From positions 1 through 33,052 of the forward strand of contig JAADJD010000055.1 of the NCBI GenBank assembly GCA_013150955.1: a stretch of 33,052 nucleotides of DNA, written 5' to 3'. Every line of letters begins with the position of its first letter. Position 1 is the stretch's first letter. The notes under the pieces are model-generated. The model made no database searches, was not told the DNA's origin, and worked only from the letters and a program-made list of their open reading frames with translations. The position numbers were made by a program, and so were the translations under genes. This document shows positions 1 to 29,075 of this stretch, piece after piece. The stretch is from Calditrichota bacterium (GTDB lineage: Bacteria; Calditrichota; Calditrichia; RBG-13-44-9; J042).

Positions 1-1754
1 TCAGCCACAGCCCAATATACTTCTTTGCGTTCTTCTTTGGTCAATCCCAATTCATCAAATACAATATCGTCTAACCTTTTTCTATCAGGTAGTGGTTTTG
101 GCTCTTGATCACGAATTGGTTTATTTATATTTAATCCATATTCTTCAAAAATTGATCTTAATTCTCTTTGAAAAATTGGTCTTATTTTTGAAATCTTTAA
201 TATTAAAATATTGTTAACTTCAAACTTCATGTTGTCTAATGCACCCTCAGCCAAATTTACCCTACCATTTATTTCACAAAACAAATTTTGAACCACACTA
301 TTAATTGAATTAATAATCCAATTGTCATTTTTTAGTTCATATGTTGTTATTGCATAAAAACGATCACTTATTAGATGCTTTCTTTTTAAAAAGGGAATAA
401 TAAATCTATCATTAAAAGCTTTAAACCATATAAAATCTGGAAGTAATTGCAATGTTATAGCCCACCAGTATTTCCTTGATCTACAAGTCGGCCTCAAATT
501 GGGCGGATTATAGCGACCACTCGGTTCTTTCCATTCGCTTTTTGTTTCTCCCCACTTGATGTACTCTAAAATAAACGCATTTTTTTTTCTTAATTCTCTT
601 TTGCTCTCATGGCACATTATAACCTTAAATTTTAAATCCTCTTCCTTTACGACAATGCTTTTAATCTCCCTGGGGCTTTTAACCACTGGCTTCAAATACT
701 CCGCCTCTACCAAAAATAGCTTATAATCCCGATCATTCTTTTTAAATTTCGACGGCTTAATCACCCGCAAACCGCGCTGCTTAATCTCTTCAATTGATTT
801 CAAATCCCGCAAATTTTGTACCCGGCCTAAATCCGGGTTTTTATCGGTAACGTCCTCCACATAAAAGAAATCGTTGGCACCGGTTTTAATTCCAAAACGT
901 ACTTCAGCAATATCTCCCAATCGGACTAACTTTCCCTTGCCCTTCTCTAAAATGGTAAAGAAAATCTCCGGGGCACGGAGGTATTTCCCACCCCATTTGT
1001 TGCCAACGTATTTCCCTTCACCAAATTTTTTCTTTTTTGCCCCTTTGATTAGTAGAGCACTATCTGTTTGCTTTTCTGGATATTCCCACCCTTCTTCCAA
1101 TAATTCCTCTTGTGTAATGGGGAACACGCGAAATTCTTCTTTTTTTACCAGCTCAGTGGCTTTATCAATGGCCAGTAAATTGCTGGTGGTTACAACTTCC
1201 TGGAATGCTTTTTTAAACGCCACAAATTTCACCGTGTGATGTAAAGCGGGCCAATTTCTACCTGCAGCGCTGATTGAGTCCCGAACAACAGGTGCACCAA
1301 ATAACACAATAACCGTATTTACATCCGCATGTTTAAAGCTGCGTTTGGCGTGGTTGTCGTAAATCGCATGCATCGGAACGTATTTGAGCAGGAATTCCTG
1401 TAAATCTTTGCCATAATCCACATCCAGCCAGGAATTAGAAGTGATAAAACAAAAGGTACCCCTGGGATTGAGCAGATTTAACCCATGGAAATAGAAATAG
1501 ATATAATAATCGCTGCGTCCGCTGATTTTCCGCCAGAATGGATAAATTGTTAACAGGGATTTTTGCAATTTTTCTTTGTAATCCCGCCTGTCTTTCAGTG
1601 TCACCTCATCCGCGGTCCGGTTGGGCGGTGCAATTTTTTCCTGCCGGACATAAGGCGGGTTGCCAATAACAATATCAAACCCGCCCTTTTCACCAAAAAT
1701 CTCCGCAAAGTCAATATCCCACACAAATGGTTTATTGGCCGGATTGGAAAGTTT
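1..1754 (-). pseudogene. C-terminal part of type IIG (Eco57I-like) restriction-modification enzyme, cut off from its start by a TAA and by the window edge
   Basis: The frame stays open from the window edge up to the TAA at 1755-1757 and continues the frame of the 1755-3689 ORF without a shift. About 30 codons past the stop it carries FDIVIGNPPYVR (NPPY at 1650-1661), the catalytic motif IV of N6-adenine methyltransferases. The sequence KISGRSDYYIYFYFHGLNLL and ITSNSWLDVDYG follow, typical of the Eco57I/COG1002 methylase fold. The rest should be the DNA target-recognition region; it includes W-rich and RFYAI segments. No start codon with a Shine-Dalgarno site was found just after the TAA, so independent translation is doubtful. 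The true C-terminus lies outside the window. Bases 1-660 are clearly more AT-rich than the remainder. Identification as an Eco57I-like enzyme is firm. Whether the gene is dead, split or misread is not known. Confidence 0.7.
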
Positions 1755-3689
1755 TTAGAGGATGTCTTTAAGTTGGGCAATTTCCTTTTGCGCATTCTGT
1801 TTTTGTTGTTCCAGCTGCCGATTTCGTTTATTACCGTTGCTGCCATTATCGGTTTCAAACATAGATGGTTGCGTTCCATGCTTCTCCCACTGACCTAACT
1901 GGCTAATTCTTTGCCGAATAAAATCCCGATAAATCCGAACTTCTTCTTCCAGCATTGCCTGAGGGTTTTTAAATTTGCAGGTGGAATCATTCAGGTAGAA
2001 TTTTTCTTTTTCCCGGGCCAATTTGGTTAATCTGCCTTTAATTTCAGATGGCATATCTTTGCCACGGACTCGTAAATCGACACCACCCAACTCCTGCACT
2101 AAAGAATCGCCGACCCGCAATTTTAAGTTAAAATTGGGTAACAAGGGATTCTTTTTAAGCTCTCCAAGTTCCATTTCGCTTTCTACAACTAATTGCAACC
2201 ACAACCGCAACTCGGTTGAGTGCACTGCCCAGGGCATTACATCCACTCCGTACAAGGAATTCTGGATGATGCGCTTCTTTAAGTTAAAAACGTCTATTTC
2301 CCTACCCGGTAGATGCCGATACACCAATCGATACAATTCTGTTAATACCAGCAGCATTCCCACCAAAAAAGCCCCACTCCCACATGCCGGATCGATTACT
2401 CTTAATGCATCCAATTTTTCTTCAAGTGTACCCCACAAATTGTTGGCTGTTAGATATTTCTCCGCTGCAGTCTTGTTTTCATCAAATAATAAATGATACC
2501 AGATGTCCTTTTCCACATCCGGTATGTTGGCATGCAGATATTCCACCAAACTCCGTCGACACATAAAATCCACTTCTACCCGCGGCGTGTAAAAAATTCC
2601 CAGGTCCTGTCTATCGTAAATTTCTTCGGCCACATTGGCCAGCGACTCATACACATACCCCAGCATTTCCGGGTCTACCGCTACTTCTACCTCCAGCGGC
2701 AAATCCTCCCGGATGGTAAAATTATACTTGTTTAAAAAATTAAATATTTGCTCGAAAAGATCATCGTTTAACTGGACATCAATCGTTCGGTCCAGTTCAT
2801 TTTCTTTGAACAATCCCCCATTCAAATACGGAGCCATTCGTAAGATATGATTGATTTCTTCGCCAAAATATGACCGATAGATAAACTTATTATTGAAGGC
2901 TTCCAGAAAAAGCACCTGCAACCATTCTGAAAAGAAGGTATCGGGTTTCACTTTTCCCTGTCGTTTCGATCGTTTGTATTCTTCCCAGAACCAGCTCACG
3001 AACCGGGGATTATTCCCCAACCATCGCTTCTTAGCAATGAAATAGTTAAACATTAATCGGTTCAATAACTGTAACGAAAATTCATGGGCCTGTCGGATGG
3101 AAATGCCCTGGTTCTTAACTGCATTTCGAATAGCGAAAAAAACTTTTTTATAATCTTCAAAAAACCTTTCGGTTACGCGTTCTCGATTAAACGCCTCTTG
3201 CCACTTTCGCCATATATCCCGGGAGGTTTTATCCTCCACCTTAACCTGTAAATCCAGGAGAATTTCCAGATCCGTGCGAAAGGGATTTTCCCGGTCGATA
3301 ACCAGCTGAGTAATTTTCAACTGAAACTCACCGGGGCCTTTTCTAATTTTTTCCGGTATGATGAAGTGATATTCTTTCCAATCCCCGGTAACAATCAATA
3401 GAAAGTATTGATAAAGGCTACTGAACTGCTGGACCAGTTGCCTGATGAAGGACCTATTTGTTTTGGTTGTCTCTACTAAAAAAATTGGCAGCTGGTTTTT
3501 AACAAAAGCAATTTGATAAATGTTTTGAATTTTTTCCGAGATTTCTTTACTGGAGACCAATTTGTTTATTTCTCTGATATAAGAAGGATCAAAAACTTCA
3601 TATCCAAGATTTTTAAAAAGATTATAAACATTTTCAGGTCTCAACAAATTTTTTACCAAATCCATTATATTTTCTTTTAACAAATCCAT
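1755..3689 (-). CDS. N-terminal part of type IIG (Eco57I-like) restriction-modification enzyme, ends at in-frame TAA
   Basis: The 644-residue product holds the N-terminal region and the S-adenosylmethionine-binding half of a combined restriction/methylation protein. Motif I, VIDPACGSGAFLVGML, lies at about residues 431-446, preceded by DLGIFYTPRVEVDFMCRRSL, the usual entry to this methylase domain, and followed by YGVDVMPWAVHSTELRLWL. The first 400 residues resemble the extended N-terminus of such enzymes, where a nuclease domain may lie, but I cannot point to a sure PD-(D/E)XK motif. The product ends in a Gln/Lys-rich stretch (RQLEQQKQNAQKEIAQLKDIL) at a TAA. The NPPY catalytic motif follows in the same frame, so this product alone should not methylate DNA. 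The intact protein would exceed 1,200 residues. It would normally recognise a DNA site, modify adenine and cut unmodified DNA. Confidence 0.75.
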   Translation of the reverse strand: MDLLKENIMDLVKNLLRPENVYNLFKNLGYEVFDPSYIREINKLVSSKEISEKIQNIYQIAFVKNQLPIFLVETTKTNRSFIRQLVQQFSSLYQYFLLIVTGDWKEYHFIIPEKIRKGPGEFQLKITQLVIDRENPFRTDLEILLDLQVKVEDKTSRDIWRKWQEAFNRERVTERFFEDYKKVFFAIRNAVKNQGISIRQAHEFSLQLLNRLMFNYFIAKKRWLGNNPRFVSWFWEEYKRSKRQGKVKPDTFFSEWLQVLFLEAFNNKFIYRSYFGEEINHILRMAPYLNGGLFKENELDRTIDVQLNDDLFEQIFNFLNKYNFTIREDLPLEVEVAVDPEMLGYVYESLANVAEEIYDRQDLGIFYTPRVEVDFMCRRSLVEYLHANIPDVEKDIWYHLLFDENKTAAEKYLTANNLWGTLEEKLDALRVIDPACGSGAFLVGMLLVLTELYRLVYRHLPGREIDVFNLKKRIIQNSLYGVDVMPWAVHSTELRLWLQLVVESEMELGELKKNPLLPNFNLKLRVGDSLVQELGGVDLRVRGKDMPSEIKGRLTKLAREKEKFYLNDSTCKFKNPQAMLEEEVRIYRDFIRQRISQLGQWEKHGTQPSMFETDNGSNGNKRNRQLEQQKQNAQKEIAQLKDIL

Positions 3690-7937: not shown

Positions 7938-8126
7938 TTTTTCCCCCAATTTTTTATTTAGAATATATAGAATACCATTTTTAAGTGTCAAACTTTGACT
8001 TCATCTTAATGTATTTGCATTCAATAAAGAATTGTATGACGCATCATAGAAAGCATGTTGATACTAAAGAGAATATTATAAACCCGAATTTAGCATCTAC
8101 AACCTGCTATTCAACGATTTTATAAT

Positions 8127-8553
8127 CCCAAATAATGCGTTAAACCACGAACCACGCGAATGAATTCGAATCATATCAACAAAATAGCGAATATATCCGG
8201 GAAAACACTTTCATCCAGAGAGCATTAAGTGCATTTTATTGTTTTTATTGGTGTTCATTCGTGTAATTCGTAGGCGAATGCATAATCTGGGTTAATTTTA
8301 TTTGTGTTCATTCGTGCAATTCGTGGTTTAACCCAGAGAATGCGTTAGACCACGAATTACACGAATTAACACGAATAGAATTAATAAAATACATTGGATT
8401 ATTTCTGGATGAAAATGTGTTGCGTGGTTTTATTCGCGATTTAATTGATATTTTTTGGTTTCATTCGCGTGATTCGCGGTTTATTGAATTATTTGGGTTT
8501 AACGCATAATCTGGGTTAATTCGTGTAATTCGTAGGCTATCGCATAATTTGGG
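8127..8553 (+). mobile_element. Cluster of nested copies of a short inverted-repeat element (MITE-like)
   Basis: Bases 8127-8291 form a full-length copy that begins CCCAAATAATGC and ends GCATAATCTGGG. A reversed copy (8332-8497) sits inside the right arm of another partial copy whose terminus is at 8515, and a third right arm ends at 8551-8553 (TTTGGG). The whole cluster is flanked by the same five bases, ATAAT, at 8122-8126 and 8554-8558. TTAAT follows both internal right ends (8292-8296 and 8516-8520). This is what repeated insertion, with some recombination or deletion, would leave. No coding capacity is seen; the element would need a transposase supplied from elsewhere. Confidence 0.75.
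8332..8497 (-). mobile_element. Reversed copy of the short inverted-repeat element, nested, with TTTAA target duplication
   Basis: This 166-base copy is the reverse complement of the family consensus: it begins CCCAGAGAATGC and ends AATTATTTGGG. It is flanked exactly by TTTAA on both sides (8327-8331 and 8498-8502). Removing it together with one TTTAA restores an uninterrupted right arm, ATTCGTGGTTTAACGCATAA, then TCTGGG, of another copy. This makes it a clear secondary insertion. Confidence 0.82.
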
Positions 8554-8572
8554 ATAATCTCGTCTGAAACAA

Positions 8573-9131: not shown

Positions 9132-9308
9132 ATCTATCTGACCTCCTTTTTTATTTTCGGTGCAACTATTGCGCTGGCAGAAAACTATGGATGATCCCAT
9201 TTAAAATCAAGTTCGGAAGCCATTTGCTTTCCAGCCGCCCCCCATTCCCGCAAAACCTGGTGGGCAAACGCCCTGCTGACTTCCGTTCAACCCAAATTGT
9301 GCATGAAA

Positions 9309-9473
9309 CCCAAATAATGCACTGAACCACGAATCACGCGAAAGAATTCGGAAAAAATCAACAAAATAGCGAATATATCCGGGAAAACATTTTCATCCAG
9401 ATAGAATCCAGTGCATTTTATTGTTTTTATTGGTGTTCATTCGTGTCATTCGTAGGCGAATGCATAATCTGGA
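9309..9473 (+). mobile_element. Short inverted-repeat element, full-length copy abutting the ccoH stop codon
   Basis: The 165-base copy begins CCCAAATAATGC and ends GCATAATCTGGA. Its interior is nearly identical to the 8127-8291 copy (for example the shared AATAGCGAATATATCCGGGA). The flanking pentamers are TGAAA (left) and TTAAA (right), a target duplication with one mismatch. Its last base is followed at once by the TTA that is the stop codon (TAA) of ccoH. Confidence 0.8.
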
Positions 9474-9974
9474 TTAAAAAATAAATCGCTTTTCATGATA
9501 GTAAGACACGCCATCCACTTCCCACTCCAATTTCACCGTCCACATGCCCCGTGCCAGGCGTGATGTATCCAGCACCTGGACACCGGTAGAATCCAGCTGC
9601 AGCGGGAGGGTAAAATCCAGCGCCGCATTGGATGGCCGATAAAATACAATCTTTCCCTGAACCGCCTGATGGGGCACATCATGGTTAAACTGAATGGTCA
9701 ACGAACGCGCCACCGGATCATGCTGCAGGGATACCACATCCCCCAGCGCGCGGGTACGCAAAATCCGCTGGATCTGCTCCTCGTACTGTAATCCCTTCTC
9801 GTAATAATTTTCGGTGACCAGATCAAACCGCTGGCCACTCAAATAAAACAGAAGACCAAACAGGAAACCCAGAAAACCCATTAACGTCAGGGCAATGCCC
9901 AGCGGCCACACCCAGGCTCCGGAACGTTTTTTTCCGCTGGATGCATCGTTTATGGGAACCGATGATTTGTTCAT
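9474..9974 (-). CDS. ccoH: FixH/CcoH family cbb3 oxidase assembly protein
   Basis: The 166-residue protein has one transmembrane helix (about residues 24-48, GIALTLMGFLGFLFGLLFYL) and a periplasmic domain. The signature DLVTENYYEKGLQYEEQI directly follows the helix, as in FixH/CcoH. FixH-like proteins are needed for assembly of the cbb3 oxidase, probably together with the copper ATPase CcoI. The start is supported by AGGAG upstream. The gene lies downstream of ccoG but is separated from it by about 430 bases that hold two repeat copies, so it may have its own promoter. The stop codon coincides with the border of a repeat element. The cytoplasmic tail is short and basic (SGKKRSGAW), consistent with an N-in orientation. 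Confidence 0.85.
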   Translation of the reverse strand: MNKSSVPINDASSGKKRSGAWVWPLGIALTLMGFLGFLFGLLFYLSGQRFDLVTENYYEKGLQYEEQIQRILRTRALGDVVSLQHDPVARSLTIQFNHDVPHQAVQGKIVFYRPSNAALDFTLPLQLDSTGVQVLDTSRLARGMWTVKLEWEVDGVSYYHEKRFIF

Positions 9975-10110
9975 AGGTGTTTCTCCTCTGGCTTCGTTTG
10001 CTTTCCCCGCTTTTCAGGTACCATCACCGATAACCAATCGGAAATTCAGTCAATTCTCGCGTCGTTTTCCTAATCGATCGATGAAACCCAGATCAAGCAC
10101 CCACACCCTA

Positions 10111-10276
10111 CCATTTAAGGTATATTAAACCGCGAATCACTTGAATAAAACAAAACACATCCACAAAATCATGAATAAATCCCGAAAACAAATTTTTATC
10201 CCGACACAATTCAAAGGATTTTACGATTTTTATTTGTGTTCATTCGTGTAATTCGTGGTCTCATGTATAATCTGGG
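10111..10276 (+). repeat. Diverged copy of the short inverted-repeat element
   Basis: The right end TATAATCTGGG and the arms AAACCGCGAATCAC and ATTCGTGTAATTCGTGG match the family. The left terminus is degraded (CCATTTAAGGTATATT), so its exact border is uncertain. The right flank is TTAAA. No matching left pentamer is seen. Confidence 0.6.
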
Positions 10277-10359
10277 TTAAAATTGACCGATTCAAAAAAA
10301 TTTGTTGCCCAGGCACCGGTAAATTTTGATTGCGGAAGCGTTGTCTTCTAACAATCTAT

Positions 10360-10408
10360 TCTTATTTGCATTCATTCGCGGGATTCGCGGTTTATAGTTT
10401 AATTCGGG
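10360..10408 (+). repeat. Truncated right end of the short inverted-repeat element abutting the ccoG stop codon
   Basis: Only the right arm is recognisable (CATTCATTCGCGGGATTCGC, then GGTTTATAGTTTAATTCGGG). Its last G at 10408 is followed directly by TCA, the reverse of the ccoG TGA stop, within the pentamer TCAAA. Another TCAAA occurs at 10292-10296 and could be the left duplicate, but the left end itself is not recognisable. Confidence 0.5.
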
Positions 10409-11815
10409 TCAAAATTCCGGGCTCACAAAGCGACTGGTCACCTTCTCCAGCAATTCGTTCCCATTGTAAACGCCGATCACCACTTTGATTTTGCTGCCGC
10501 GAATTTCTGACCGGGGAATGCGAATGAAGAAAGCCGATTCCGCCATGCCGTCGCCGGGCACGTGAATATCCTGCCCCGTGACCATGTAAATTTCCCCGCG
10601 TGGCTCCAGTAGTTTCAACTGGATATCGTACTCCCGGAACGACTTGTTGACCACCCGAACATTGTACAGATTCTGAATCCGTCCACCTTCCAGCTCCTGA
10701 TACAGGACTCCGGGCGTTCGCAGAATGGTCGTCTCCACCGGCGAGCGCGTGATCAGTAAATAGCTCAGCAAACCGGTAATGGCCACAAACAATACCGTGT
10801 AGGCCACGATGCGCGAGGTGATCTTTAGTTTTTCTCCCCGTTCGATGGCATCCATGGATGTGTACCGGATGAGTCCCCGGGGGCGCTGAATTTTATCCAT
10901 CACCAGATTGCAGGCATCGATACAGGCGGTGCAATTAATGCATTCCAGCTGGGTACCGTTTCGGATGTCAATCCCTGTGGGGCACACCTGCACGCATAGC
11001 CGGCAGTCGATACAATCGCCCAGGTGGGAAGTATCCTGGCCTTTGCGCAACTTTCCACGGGGTTCTCCCCGCTTGTAATCATAGGCCACCACAATGGTAT
11101 TGGCATCCAGCAACACCCCCTGAAGCCGCCCGTAGGGACACACCATGGTACACACCTGTTCCCGAAAGCGGGCGTAAATGCCATAAAACACCGCACTGAA
11201 CAGCAGCATCATGCTCAGGCCGGCAATGTGCTTCTGAGGCGGATCGGTTACAATTTCCCACAATTGATCAATACCGATGATATATGCCAGCAGGGTGTTC
11301 CCGATCAGAAACGAAATGCCAAAAAAGATCCCGTGCTTTAAAAGCTTTTTAAAGATCTTCTCCTTTGTCCAGGGTGCCCGATCCAGTTGCCGTTGCTTGT
11401 GCGCATCGCCTTCAATCCAGTACTCGATTCGGCGGAAGACCATCTCCATAAAAACCGTTTGCGGACAGGCCCAGCCACACCAGATTCGACCCAGCACCGA
11501 TGTAAATAGAATGATAAAAATGATGATCGCCAGAACCGCCAGGGCAAACAGGTGCAAATCCTGCGGCCAGAATGGAATGCCAAACAGGATAAACTTCCGT
11601 TCAACCACATTCAGCAGAATGAAGGGCTGACCATTCACTTTAATGAAAGGGGTACCAAACAGGATGGCCAGCAGAACGATGCTGACCAGAGTACGCGCCC
11701 GGTACAATGGCCCCCGGGGCTTTTTGGGATAAATCCAGATTCGTTTACCGGATTCGTCAATCGTGGCCACCCGATCGCGGAAACTCTCGCTACTATTGGC
11801 CGTGGCACTCATCAT
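10409..11815 (-). CDS. ccoG: Cytochrome c oxidase accessory protein CcoG (FixG/RdxA)
   Basis: The 468-residue membrane iron-sulfur protein has the full CcoG pattern. Transmembrane helices flank CGWACPQTVFMEMVFRRIEY (from residue 113). A further CPYGRLQG motif and two ferredoxin-type clusters follow, CIDCRLCVQVCP (268-279) and CINCTACIDAC, and then one more helix and a C-terminal immunoglobulin-like CcoG domain. CcoG takes part in cbb3 oxidase assembly; work on Rhodobacter points to reduction of Cu(II) to Cu(I) for the copper supply. The gene follows the ccoNO-Q-P structural genes after a terminator-like hairpin at 11915-11940. All conserved cysteines are present and the length is normal for the family. 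Its stop codon touches a repeat fragment. Confidence 0.93.
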   Translation of the reverse strand: MMSATANSSESFRDRVATIDESGKRIWIYPKKPRGPLYRARTLVSIVLLAILFGTPFIKVNGQPFILLNVVERKFILFGIPFWPQDLHLFALAVLAIIIFIILFTSVLGRIWCGWACPQTVFMEMVFRRIEYWIEGDAHKQRQLDRAPWTKEKIFKKLLKHGIFFGISFLIGNTLLAYIIGIDQLWEIVTDPPQKHIAGLSMMLLFSAVFYGIYARFREQVCTMVCPYGRLQGVLLDANTIVVAYDYKRGEPRGKLRKGQDTSHLGDCIDCRLCVQVCPTGIDIRNGTQLECINCTACIDACNLVMDKIQRPRGLIRYTSMDAIERGEKLKITSRIVAYTVLFVAITGLLSYLLITRSPVETTILRTPGVLYQELEGGRIQNLYNVRVVNKSFREYDIQLKLLEPRGEIYMVTGQDIHVPGDGMAESAFFIRIPRSEIRGSKIKVVIGVYNGNELLEKVTSRFVSPEF

Positions 11816-27266: not shown

Positions 27267-29075
27267 TTGCCCGTTTTCGGAGCATGGGTATTGTTGGCCG
27301 CAATCCCCAATCACCGGGCGGTTATTATCCCGAATTTTTCATTCGCCTACAAATGACACGAATTAAAACGAATAAAAACAATAAAATTGGATGTATCTGA
27401 ATAAAAATATATTCCGGGGTTTATTCGCGATTTTGTGGATATTTATTGGTTTCATTCGTGTGATTCGCGGTTAAATGCATTATTTGGGATTATTTTGCCC
27501 TTTCAGGGCGGAGGGGGTGTGGATTGGGTTGGCTCCTTTACCAGGGGCGTTGCCCCTGGCTATCCTGTTTTGCCCCTTCAGGGCGGGATGAAATAGGTGG
27601 TTCTTTCTGATTTCCGTGGAAAATTCGCATGGTTTTCCTGAATCTCGATGGCCGATATTTTGCCCCTTCGGGGCACATTTGCTTGAAGGGCAAAAATAGG
27701 GTAGCCCCGTGCAGGGCGCGGGGGGCACGTGATACTCACCGATGATACACCCGCTGCCTGAAGGGCAGCAATAGAATTTGTTCATTTCCGGGACGATGGG
27801 CATTGTTGGTTGGGATTTTCCGATTACCGGGCAGTTGCTATTTTGCCCTTTCAGGGCGGAGGGGATTTATGGTTTTGGGACGTTCCCATTACCAGGGGCG
27901 TTGCCCCTGGCTATCCTGTTTTGCCCCTTCGGGGCGGGATAAGACAGGTGGTTTTTTCTGTTTTTTCCTGGAAGATTCTCCTGGTTTTCCTGAATCCCGA
28001 TAGCCGATATTTTGCCCCTTCGGGGCACATTTGCCCGAAGGGCAAATAGATAATAGCCCCGTGCAAGGCGCGGGGGACACGTGATACCCACCGATGATCC
28101 ACCCGCTGCCTGAAGGGCAGCGATAGAATTGGCCCGTTTCCGGGGCATGGGCGTTGTTGGTTGGGGGTTCCCAATCACCAGGCGGTTGTTATTCTGCCCT
28201 TACAGGGCGGAAGGAGTTGTGGATTGGGTCGGCTCCGTTACCAGGGGCGTTGCCCCTGGCTATCCTATTTTGCCCCTTCGGGGCGAGATAAGACGGAGGG
28301 TTTTTCTGTTTTTTTCATGGAAGATTCGCATGGTTTTCCTGAATCCCGGTGGCCGATATTTTGTCCCTTCGGGGGCAGATTTGCCCGAAGGGCAAAAATA
28401 AGGTAGCCCCGCGCAGGGGGCGGGGGCATGTGATACCCACCGATGATCCATCCGCTGCCTGAAGGGCAGCAATAGAATTTGTTCGTTTACGGGACGATGG
28501 GCATTGTTGGTTGGGATTTCCCGATTACCGGGCGGTTGCTATTTTGCCCTTTCAGGGCGAAAGAAATTTATGGTTTTGGGACGTTCCCGTCACCAGGGGC
28601 GTTGCCCCTGGCTATCCTGTTTTGCCCCTTCGGGGCGGGATAAGACGGTAGGTTTTTCTGTTTTTTTCATAGAAAATTCGCATGGTTTTCCTGAATCCCG
28701 ATTGCCGATATTTTGCCCCTTCGGGGCACATTTGCCTGAAGGGCAAAAATAGGGTAGCCCCGCGCAGGGCGCGGGGGACACGTGATACCCATCGATGATC
28801 CATCCGCTGCCTGAAGGGCAGCAATAGAATTGGCCCGTTTCCGGGGCATGGGCGTTGTTGGTTGGGGGTTCCCAATCACCGGGCGGTTGTTATTCTGCCC
28901 TTACAGGGCGGAATGAGTTGTGGATTGGGTCGGCTACACTACCAGGGGCGTTGCCCCTGGCTACCCTATTTTGCCCCTTCGGGGCGGAGGGAAATTGTGG
29001 TTGGGAACGTTCCCATTACCAGGAGTGATCCCCCTGACTATCCTATTTTGCCCTCTTGAGGCACCCCATCATCTG
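27267..29075. repeat. Tandem array, 350-bp unit in an alternating 701-bp dimer, rich in GC palindromes
   Basis: The landmark ACCAGGGGCGTTGCCCCTGG starts at 27540, 27891, 28240, 28592 and 28941, giving spacings of 351, 349, 352 and 349. Each full unit also has GCCCTTTCAGGGC or GCCCTTACAGGGC, GCCCCTTCGGGGC, TTGCCTGAAGGGCAA-type, GCCCCGCGCAGGGCGCGGGG and GCTGCCTGAAGGGCAGC palindromes. Two unit types alternate: one with GGATTGGGTCGGCT (27520, 28220, 28921), one with GGTTTTGGGACGTTCCC (27871, 28572). The array therefore has four full units and partial ends. A fragment at 27267-27328 starts it and is split from the rest by an inserted element (27329-27488). Short frames of 60-100 codons repeat on both strands with each unit and are artefacts of the repeat, not genes. 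Function unknown. Confidence 0.88.
27329..27488 (-). mobile_element. Short inverted-repeat element inserted in the tandem array, ATTAT target duplication
   Basis: The 160-base reversed copy begins CCCGAATTTTTCATTCGCC and ends GCATTATTTGGG, with ATTAT on both sides (27324-27328 and 27489-27493). Joining the flanks through one ATTAT restores the array sequence CGGGCGGTTATTATTTTGCC, which matches the same place in the other units. The element therefore entered the array after the array existed. Confidence 0.85.

What the first reader, a model, noticed from the sequence alone, without database searches (positions are those of the whole stretch)
1640..1760. In-frame TAA splits a restriction-modification gene between methylase motif I and NPPY
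The frame before and after the TAA at 1755-1757 is the same and both sides match one enzyme, so a single base change is enough to explain the interruption. The upstream product keeps the SAM-binding motif (DPACGSG) but lacks NPPY. The change could be recent inactivation, a phase-variable state, or a sequence error. A naturally split enzyme is less likely because no good start follows the stop.
Basis: partly seen in the sequence, partly recalled or inferred. Interest (0 to 1): 0.5.

Follow-up and report, generated by a model that had tools for sequence, protein, structure and literature searches.

The report
Stop codon breaks defence methylase gene
A bacterial DNA-methylating defence gene, apparently acquired from elsewhere, carries one premature stop codon between the two halves of its catalytic core, most likely a recent and ordinary inactivation.

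Summary
On the minus strand one gene (ATG 3689-3687) is cut by an in-frame TAA at 1757-1755. The upstream 644 codons hold DPACGSG. The downstream 584 codons stay open, hold NPPY, and run off the window's first base, which is also the contig's first base.

Of 28 related loci, 27 read across this site in one frame without a stop; the closest (61% identical) is from the same order. The stop sits at the end of a poorly conserved, predicted helical hairpin inside the methylase fold. The half after the stop is as constrained as in that intact relative (10 against 9 private changes in 216 columns), so the stop is recent, or an error, or the half is still made.

In 19 of 28 loci the methylase sits near an HKD-Snf2 helicase. 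No close match to that helicase was found in the window's genome, but the contig breaks exactly there. The closest relative's helicase has two in-frame stops. Best reading: ordinary recent nonsense inactivation in a horizontally acquired, restriction-like system. Sequence error is not excluded; phase variation is unsupported; a natural split is unlikely. Whether the enzyme is a true Type IIG nuclease-methylase is not settled; its N-terminal E-x-K is missing here.

The parts
1758..3689 (-). Upstream half, 644 codons: N-terminal alpha/beta domain, helical region, SAM motif I DPACGSG (2393-2373) and the first strands of the methylase fold
1755..1757 (-). In-frame TAA (residue position 645), at the end of a predicted helical hairpin (helices 576-603 and 619-646)
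3..1754 (-). Downstream half, 584 codons open, cut by the contig end: NPPY (1661-1650), rest of the methylase fold, target-recognition region
1722..1724 (-). GTG, the first in-frame ATG/GTG/TTG after the stop and the only one of these before NPPY; no Shine-Dalgarno-like sequence
1..2 (.). End of the assembled contig (G000:C11 base 1), 13 codons before the gene's end by comparison with L032
3802..6738 (-). Neighbouring FAD-oxidase-like gene (label recalled, not scanned); its ortholog in same-genus genome G001 is followed by other genes and no methylase

Best explanation
An Eco57I-type N6-adenine DNA methylase, acquired horizontally as part of a restriction-like defence locus (in relatives: methylase plus HKD-nuclease/Snf2-helicase), has been inactivated recently by one nonsense change. 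The product would end after the motif I half of the methylase fold, without NPPY or the target-recognition region, so neither methylation nor target recognition by this protein is expected. Shown: the in-frame TAA, intact relatives, no decay after the stop, absence from the same-genus relative. Inferred: that the allele is real, that the product is inactive, and that its loss is tolerated because no working restriction partner remains.
For: 27 of 28 related loci (one search set) cross the site in one frame with no stop there. Constraint in the half after the stop is no weaker than in the closest relative L032: 10 window-only against 9 L032-only changes in 216 columns, 20 against 24 in 313 columns before it; deviations at columns invariant in the other rows are 3 of 161 against 4 of 172. 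TAA ends 6 of 16 window genes examined. G+C is 38-40% in the gene against 50% in the window. At E<=1e-60, 4 of 40 phylum genomes hold the gene, own included, and the same-genus G001 and same-family G002 and G003 do not. At the orthologous oxidase in G001 no methylase follows. Other copies are broken too: a frame change in the same linker in G056, frame changes in L047 and L007, L044 with its N half replaced, and the closest relative's helicase with two in-frame TAA.
Against: The gene shows no second lesion and no loss of constraint, which also fits a sequence error or a half that is still translated. The partner's absence from the genome is weak evidence because the contig ends where the partner would start. 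L032 shows the opposite order of loss: methylase intact, helicase broken.
Confidence: 0.7

Rival explanations
1. Sequencing or assembly error, or a minority allele in the assembled population: the real gene is intact.
For: Only one lesion in about 3.7 kb and full constraint on both sides. The gene sits at a contig end, where assemblies are less reliable.
Against: The site is about 1.75 kb inside the contig, the change is not an indel in a long homopolymer, and single-base errors of short-read assemblies are rare (recalled, not tested). Broken copies are common in this system.
Confidence: 0.18
2. A natural two-chain methylase: the N half ends at the TAA and the C half starts by reinitiation at GTG 1724, and the two halves assemble.
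For: The stop falls in a variable linker just before conserved KPFVWDIDFAEIF and at the end of a predicted helical hairpin. GTG lies 11 codons after the stop. Constraint persists after it. A distant relative, G056, is split in the same linker into 631- and 592-codon frames.
Against: No Shine-Dalgarno-like sequence before the GTG. 27 of 28 relatives are single-chain at this site, and G056 is the only such case in the 392 genomes of its phylum that were searched and has no comparable kin there.
Confidence: 0.07
3. Readthrough or recoding of TAA yields full-length enzyme.
For: The frame is unchanged and constrained after the stop. The closest relative's helicase also carries in-frame TAA, twice.
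Against: TAA is an ordinary terminator in 6 of 16 window genes. No known readthrough context was recognised (recalled knowledge). No suppressor tRNA lies in the window; the rest of the genome was not scanned for tRNAs.
Confidence: 0.03
4. Phase-variable OFF state.
For: RM methylases are often phase variable in other bacteria (recalled; paper listing).
Against: In-frame stop with no frame change, no tract of repeats at the site.
Confidence: 0.02

Closest known systems
Type IIG / IIL restriction-methylase enzymes (MmeI, BpuSI; PADLOC REase_MTase_IIG)
   Same: Size, motif I to NPPY order, C-terminal recognition region; best PADLOC profile hits for L032 and L036; MmeI found by profile and by fold.
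   Different: N-terminal E-x-K absent in the window and L032; a separate HKD-Snf2 helicase nearby in 19 of 28 loci; interrupted here.
BREX methylase PglX/BrxX
   Same: Best Foldseek match of the model by E-value (8q56, 3.3e-10, but TM about 0.26); weak profile hits.
   Different: Far below NCBIfam BREX cut-offs (for example 48.5 against 400 bits); no other BREX gene among the ORFs scanned.
PADLOC candidate C3a139 'HKD+Snf2'
   Same: The relatives' partner gene matches it, 202 bits for L036.
   Different: That model covers the helicase only, and no such gene was found in the window's genome.
DUF499-centred BREX-related (BR) Type-2 systems (PMC12839542; sections 28-30 and passages read)
   Same: N6-methylase plus HKD-nuclease/Snf2-helicase, proposed there as RM-like.
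   Different: BR methylases carry DUF1156 and the locus a DUF499 ATPase. Pfam shows no DUF1156 in L032 or L036, and DUF499 was seen only in the rearranged L044. Not every flanking ORF was scanned.

Membership tests
Eco57I-type N6-adenine DNA methylase | SAM motif I followed by NPPY in one reading frame, Pfam match above cut-off | tested here: met
   MmeI_Mtase 33.4 bits (cut-off 27) before the stop, Eco57I 91.6 bits (25.3) after it; the frame is interrupted by the TAA
Type IIG restriction enzyme | N-terminal PD-(D/E)XK nuclease active site | tested here: not met
   E-x-K in 14 of 26 alignment rows; absent in 10 including window and L032; 1 row without the motif in the aligned place, 1 row with a gap. 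No structure of this domain was compared on its own
Type IIG restriction enzyme | Cleavage and methylation by one polypeptide | not testable with these tools
   needs purified enzyme
BREX | PglX/BrxX above family cut-off with PglZ and BrxC nearby | tested here: not met
   NCBIfam BREX models 27.5-48.5 bits against cut-offs 400-900; neighbours were read as ORFs only
BREX-related Type-2 (DUF499) system | DUF499 ATPase and DUF1156 methylase | tested here: not met
   no DUF1156 in L032 or L036 methylases; DUF499 only in L044 among the 15 proteins scanned
Two-gene methylase plus HKD-Snf2 locus (as seen in relatives) | HKD-Snf2 helicase nearby | tested here: inconclusive
   present in 19 of 28 relatives; not found in the window's genome, but the contig ends there
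Phase-variable RM gene | simple repeat tract at the switch | tested here: not met
Natural split methylase | second half with its own start signal, and the split conserved in relatives | tested here: not met
   no Shine-Dalgarno-like sequence; 27 of 28 relatives continuous here

The most novel reading that the evidence does not exclude
The TAA is not a lesion: the linker between the motif I half and the NPPY half is a tolerated split point, and the enzyme works as two chains held together by the helical hairpin, as the independently split relative G056 may also do.
Probability: 0.06. Interest if true: 0.55.

Novelty: new member of a known kind. Interest (0 to 1): 0.2.

Why it matters
As it stands it is an ordinary example of turnover in a defence system: a horizontally acquired methylase carries a stop, and the closest relative has lost the partner helicase instead. 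If the two halves were both made and worked together, this would be a natural split methylase and a useful place to divide such enzymes. The surrounding family, a methylase near an HKD-Snf2 helicase with variable genes between them, may deserve attention more than this stop.

Tried and rejected
Phase variation by repeats: rejected. Genome-wide reassignment of TAA: rejected, 6 of 16 window genes end in TAA. A second copy of the gene's last 330 bases in the genome, to explain the contig break by repeats: of 23 matches, the other 22 were 15-50 bases long, so not supported. Bridging the gap through the gene that follows the oxidase in G001: its homologue lies on G000:C36, whose end holds other genes and a transposase-like frame (label from reading, not scanned) and no piece of the helicase at E<=0.1, so the gap stays open. 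XRE-peptidase cargo in the own genome: nothing found, and the tool warns that the empty answer lacks a control. Viral contigs: no relative. Closer kin around G056: 1 of 392 genomes, G056 itself. PDB by single sequence: nothing at E<=0.001. Literature: five searches; apart from PMC12839542 only listings and abstract beginnings were seen, and none of the listings named a two-gene Eco57I-type methylase plus HKD-Snf2 system. No dN/dS was computed, because at 61% protein identity synonymous sites would be saturated (judgement).

Clustering of breaks in the linker (window, G056, L044) and of contig ends in the C-terminal half was noticed, but I ran no formal test and claim nothing from it.

Full report
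Observation. The window's first 3.7 kb hold one minus-strand gene. It starts at ATG 3689-3687, preceded by GAGG, and meets TAA at 1757-1755 after 644 codons. The same frame then stays open for 584 codons to base 3; by base composition this has a chance of about 1e-20. The upstream half matches Pfam MmeI_Mtase and the downstream half Eco57I, and both match PADLOC Type IIG and methylase models. DPACGSG is upstream, NPPY downstream. The window begins at the first base of contig G000:C11 in a 66-contig genome of 99.73% estimated completeness; relatives show that the gene would go on, for 13 codons in L032.

Relatives. A scan of 84,980 species genomes gave 28 related loci, in archaea and several bacterial groups. 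In 27 of the 28, one alignment runs across the stop position in one frame with no stop there. The exception is L044, where the matching part starts at query residue 623, and the gene upstream is a DUF499 piece. Breaks elsewhere exist: L044 has further stops, L046 has one stop near its end, L047 has a frame change near residue 735, L057 and L058 are cut after residue 870 by an AlbA-domain gene. The closest relative, L032 (Caldithrix sp. RBG_13_44_9, which by its coordinates is G009 of the same order), is 61% identical and uninterrupted. The residue at the stop position differs among relatives and the segment is poorly conserved, while KPFVWDIDFAEIF just after it is strongly conserved.

Age of the lesion. 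With columns where at least 70% of the other rows agree, the window has 10 private changes and L032 has 9 in 216 columns after the stop; before it the figures are 20 and 24 in 313 columns. At columns invariant in the other rows, the window deviates at 3 of 161 and L032 at 4 of 172 (the last 29 residues were not in that alignment). A rough bound from the Poisson limit is under about 2% neutral change per site since the stop arose. So the stop is recent, or an error, or the second half is still in use.

Structure. AlphaFold2 on the read-through protein (1,200 of 1,229 residues, 26 rows; mean pLDDT 71.4, pTM 0.60) puts the stop at the end of a helical hairpin (576-603, 619-646) between the early strands (431-433, 479-481) and the strand before NPPY (671-676). 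The truncated product would therefore hold only part of the methylase fold. Foldseek's best matches by E-value are BREX PglX/BrxX, CamA, MmeI and BpuSI, with low TM-scores for the whole model (about 0.2-0.3 by query length). A profile search of PDB sequences agrees: CamA, BseCI, BrxX, MmeI.

What kind of system. In 19 of 28 loci an HKD(PLD)-Snf2 helicase lies nearby, downstream in 18 and upstream in L059. Of the nine without it, eight have less than about 1.6 kb of sequence after the match; only L058 has more (3.7 kb) without it. The helicase matches PADLOC candidate C3a139 'HKD+Snf2' and Pfam PLDc_2, SNF2-rel_dom and Helicase_C. Between the two genes lie varied genes: M78-peptidase regulators, an AAA ATPase, a radical SAM protein, Hsp70-like and Y1-transposase genes. 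The N-terminal E-x-K of the methylase is present in 14 of 26 rows and absent in the window and L032, so the restriction function in this clade more likely lies with the helicase partner; this is inference. A recent comparative paper (PMC12839542; sections 28-30 and passages read) describes related DUF499-centred systems with an HKD-Snf2 effector and an N6-methylase and proposes an RM-like action. The present loci lack the DUF1156 and DUF499 features tested, so I do not file them there.

State in this genome. The helicase was not found in the window's genome: the best matches were E 1e-7, 28-30% identity, whereas relatives are about 48-78% identical. The contig ends exactly where it would start, so absence is not proven. 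The gene is poorer in G+C (38-40%) than the window (50%), is absent at E<=1e-60 from the same-genus and same-family genomes G001-G003, and is missing behind the orthologous oxidase in G001. This fits recent acquisition. In L032 the helicase carries two in-frame TAA while the methylase is intact.

Judgement. Recent nonsense inactivation is the best explanation (0.70), sequence error next (0.18). A natural split (0.07) lacks a start signal and kin that share it; readthrough (0.03) and phase variation (0.02) have little support. The finding is ordinary.

Noticed in passing
L037:4258-7828, L044:5604-7045, L036:8494-8625, L047:8484-8618: Extra, diverged copies of the methylase gene's 3' end (about 45 codons) lie between methylase and helicase: three in L037, two in L044, one each in L036 and L047; none in 14 other loci examined. 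They may mark past exchanges or insertions at the gene's end.
   Followed up: partly
L058:6710-8134 and L057:2914-4039: An AlbA/Schlafen-domain gene cuts the methylase after residue 870 in two archaeal loci; in L058 the last 284 codons follow as a separate frame.
   Followed up: partly
L076:6576-6649 (G056): A frame change in the same linker as the window's stop splits the G056 methylase into 631- and 592-codon frames; the helicase beside it is intact.
   Followed up: partly
L032:11385 and L032:12624: Two in-frame TAA in the HKD-Snf2 helicase of the closest relative.
   Followed up: partly
window 1-3; L034:4012: The window's contig and L034's contig both end at nearly the same place in the gene's last codons (query 1229 and 1226); five more contigs (L042, L046, L048, L049, L052) end in or within 135 bases of the C-terminal half.
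   Followed up: no
window 8124-8556, 9289-9489, 10109-10411, 27325-27494: A dispersed repeat family (172-nt and 52-nt units, direct and inverted, 64-96% alike) between genes; further copies on contig C36 of the same genome.
   Followed up: partly
L036:7809-8503, L047:7799-8493: Palindromic 32-nt repeats (3 copies each) around a Y1-transposase-like gene just after the methylase.
   Followed up: no
L087:8308-10047 (G000:C36 end): A transposase-like frame runs off the end of another contig of the window's genome (label from reading, not scanned).
   Followed up: no
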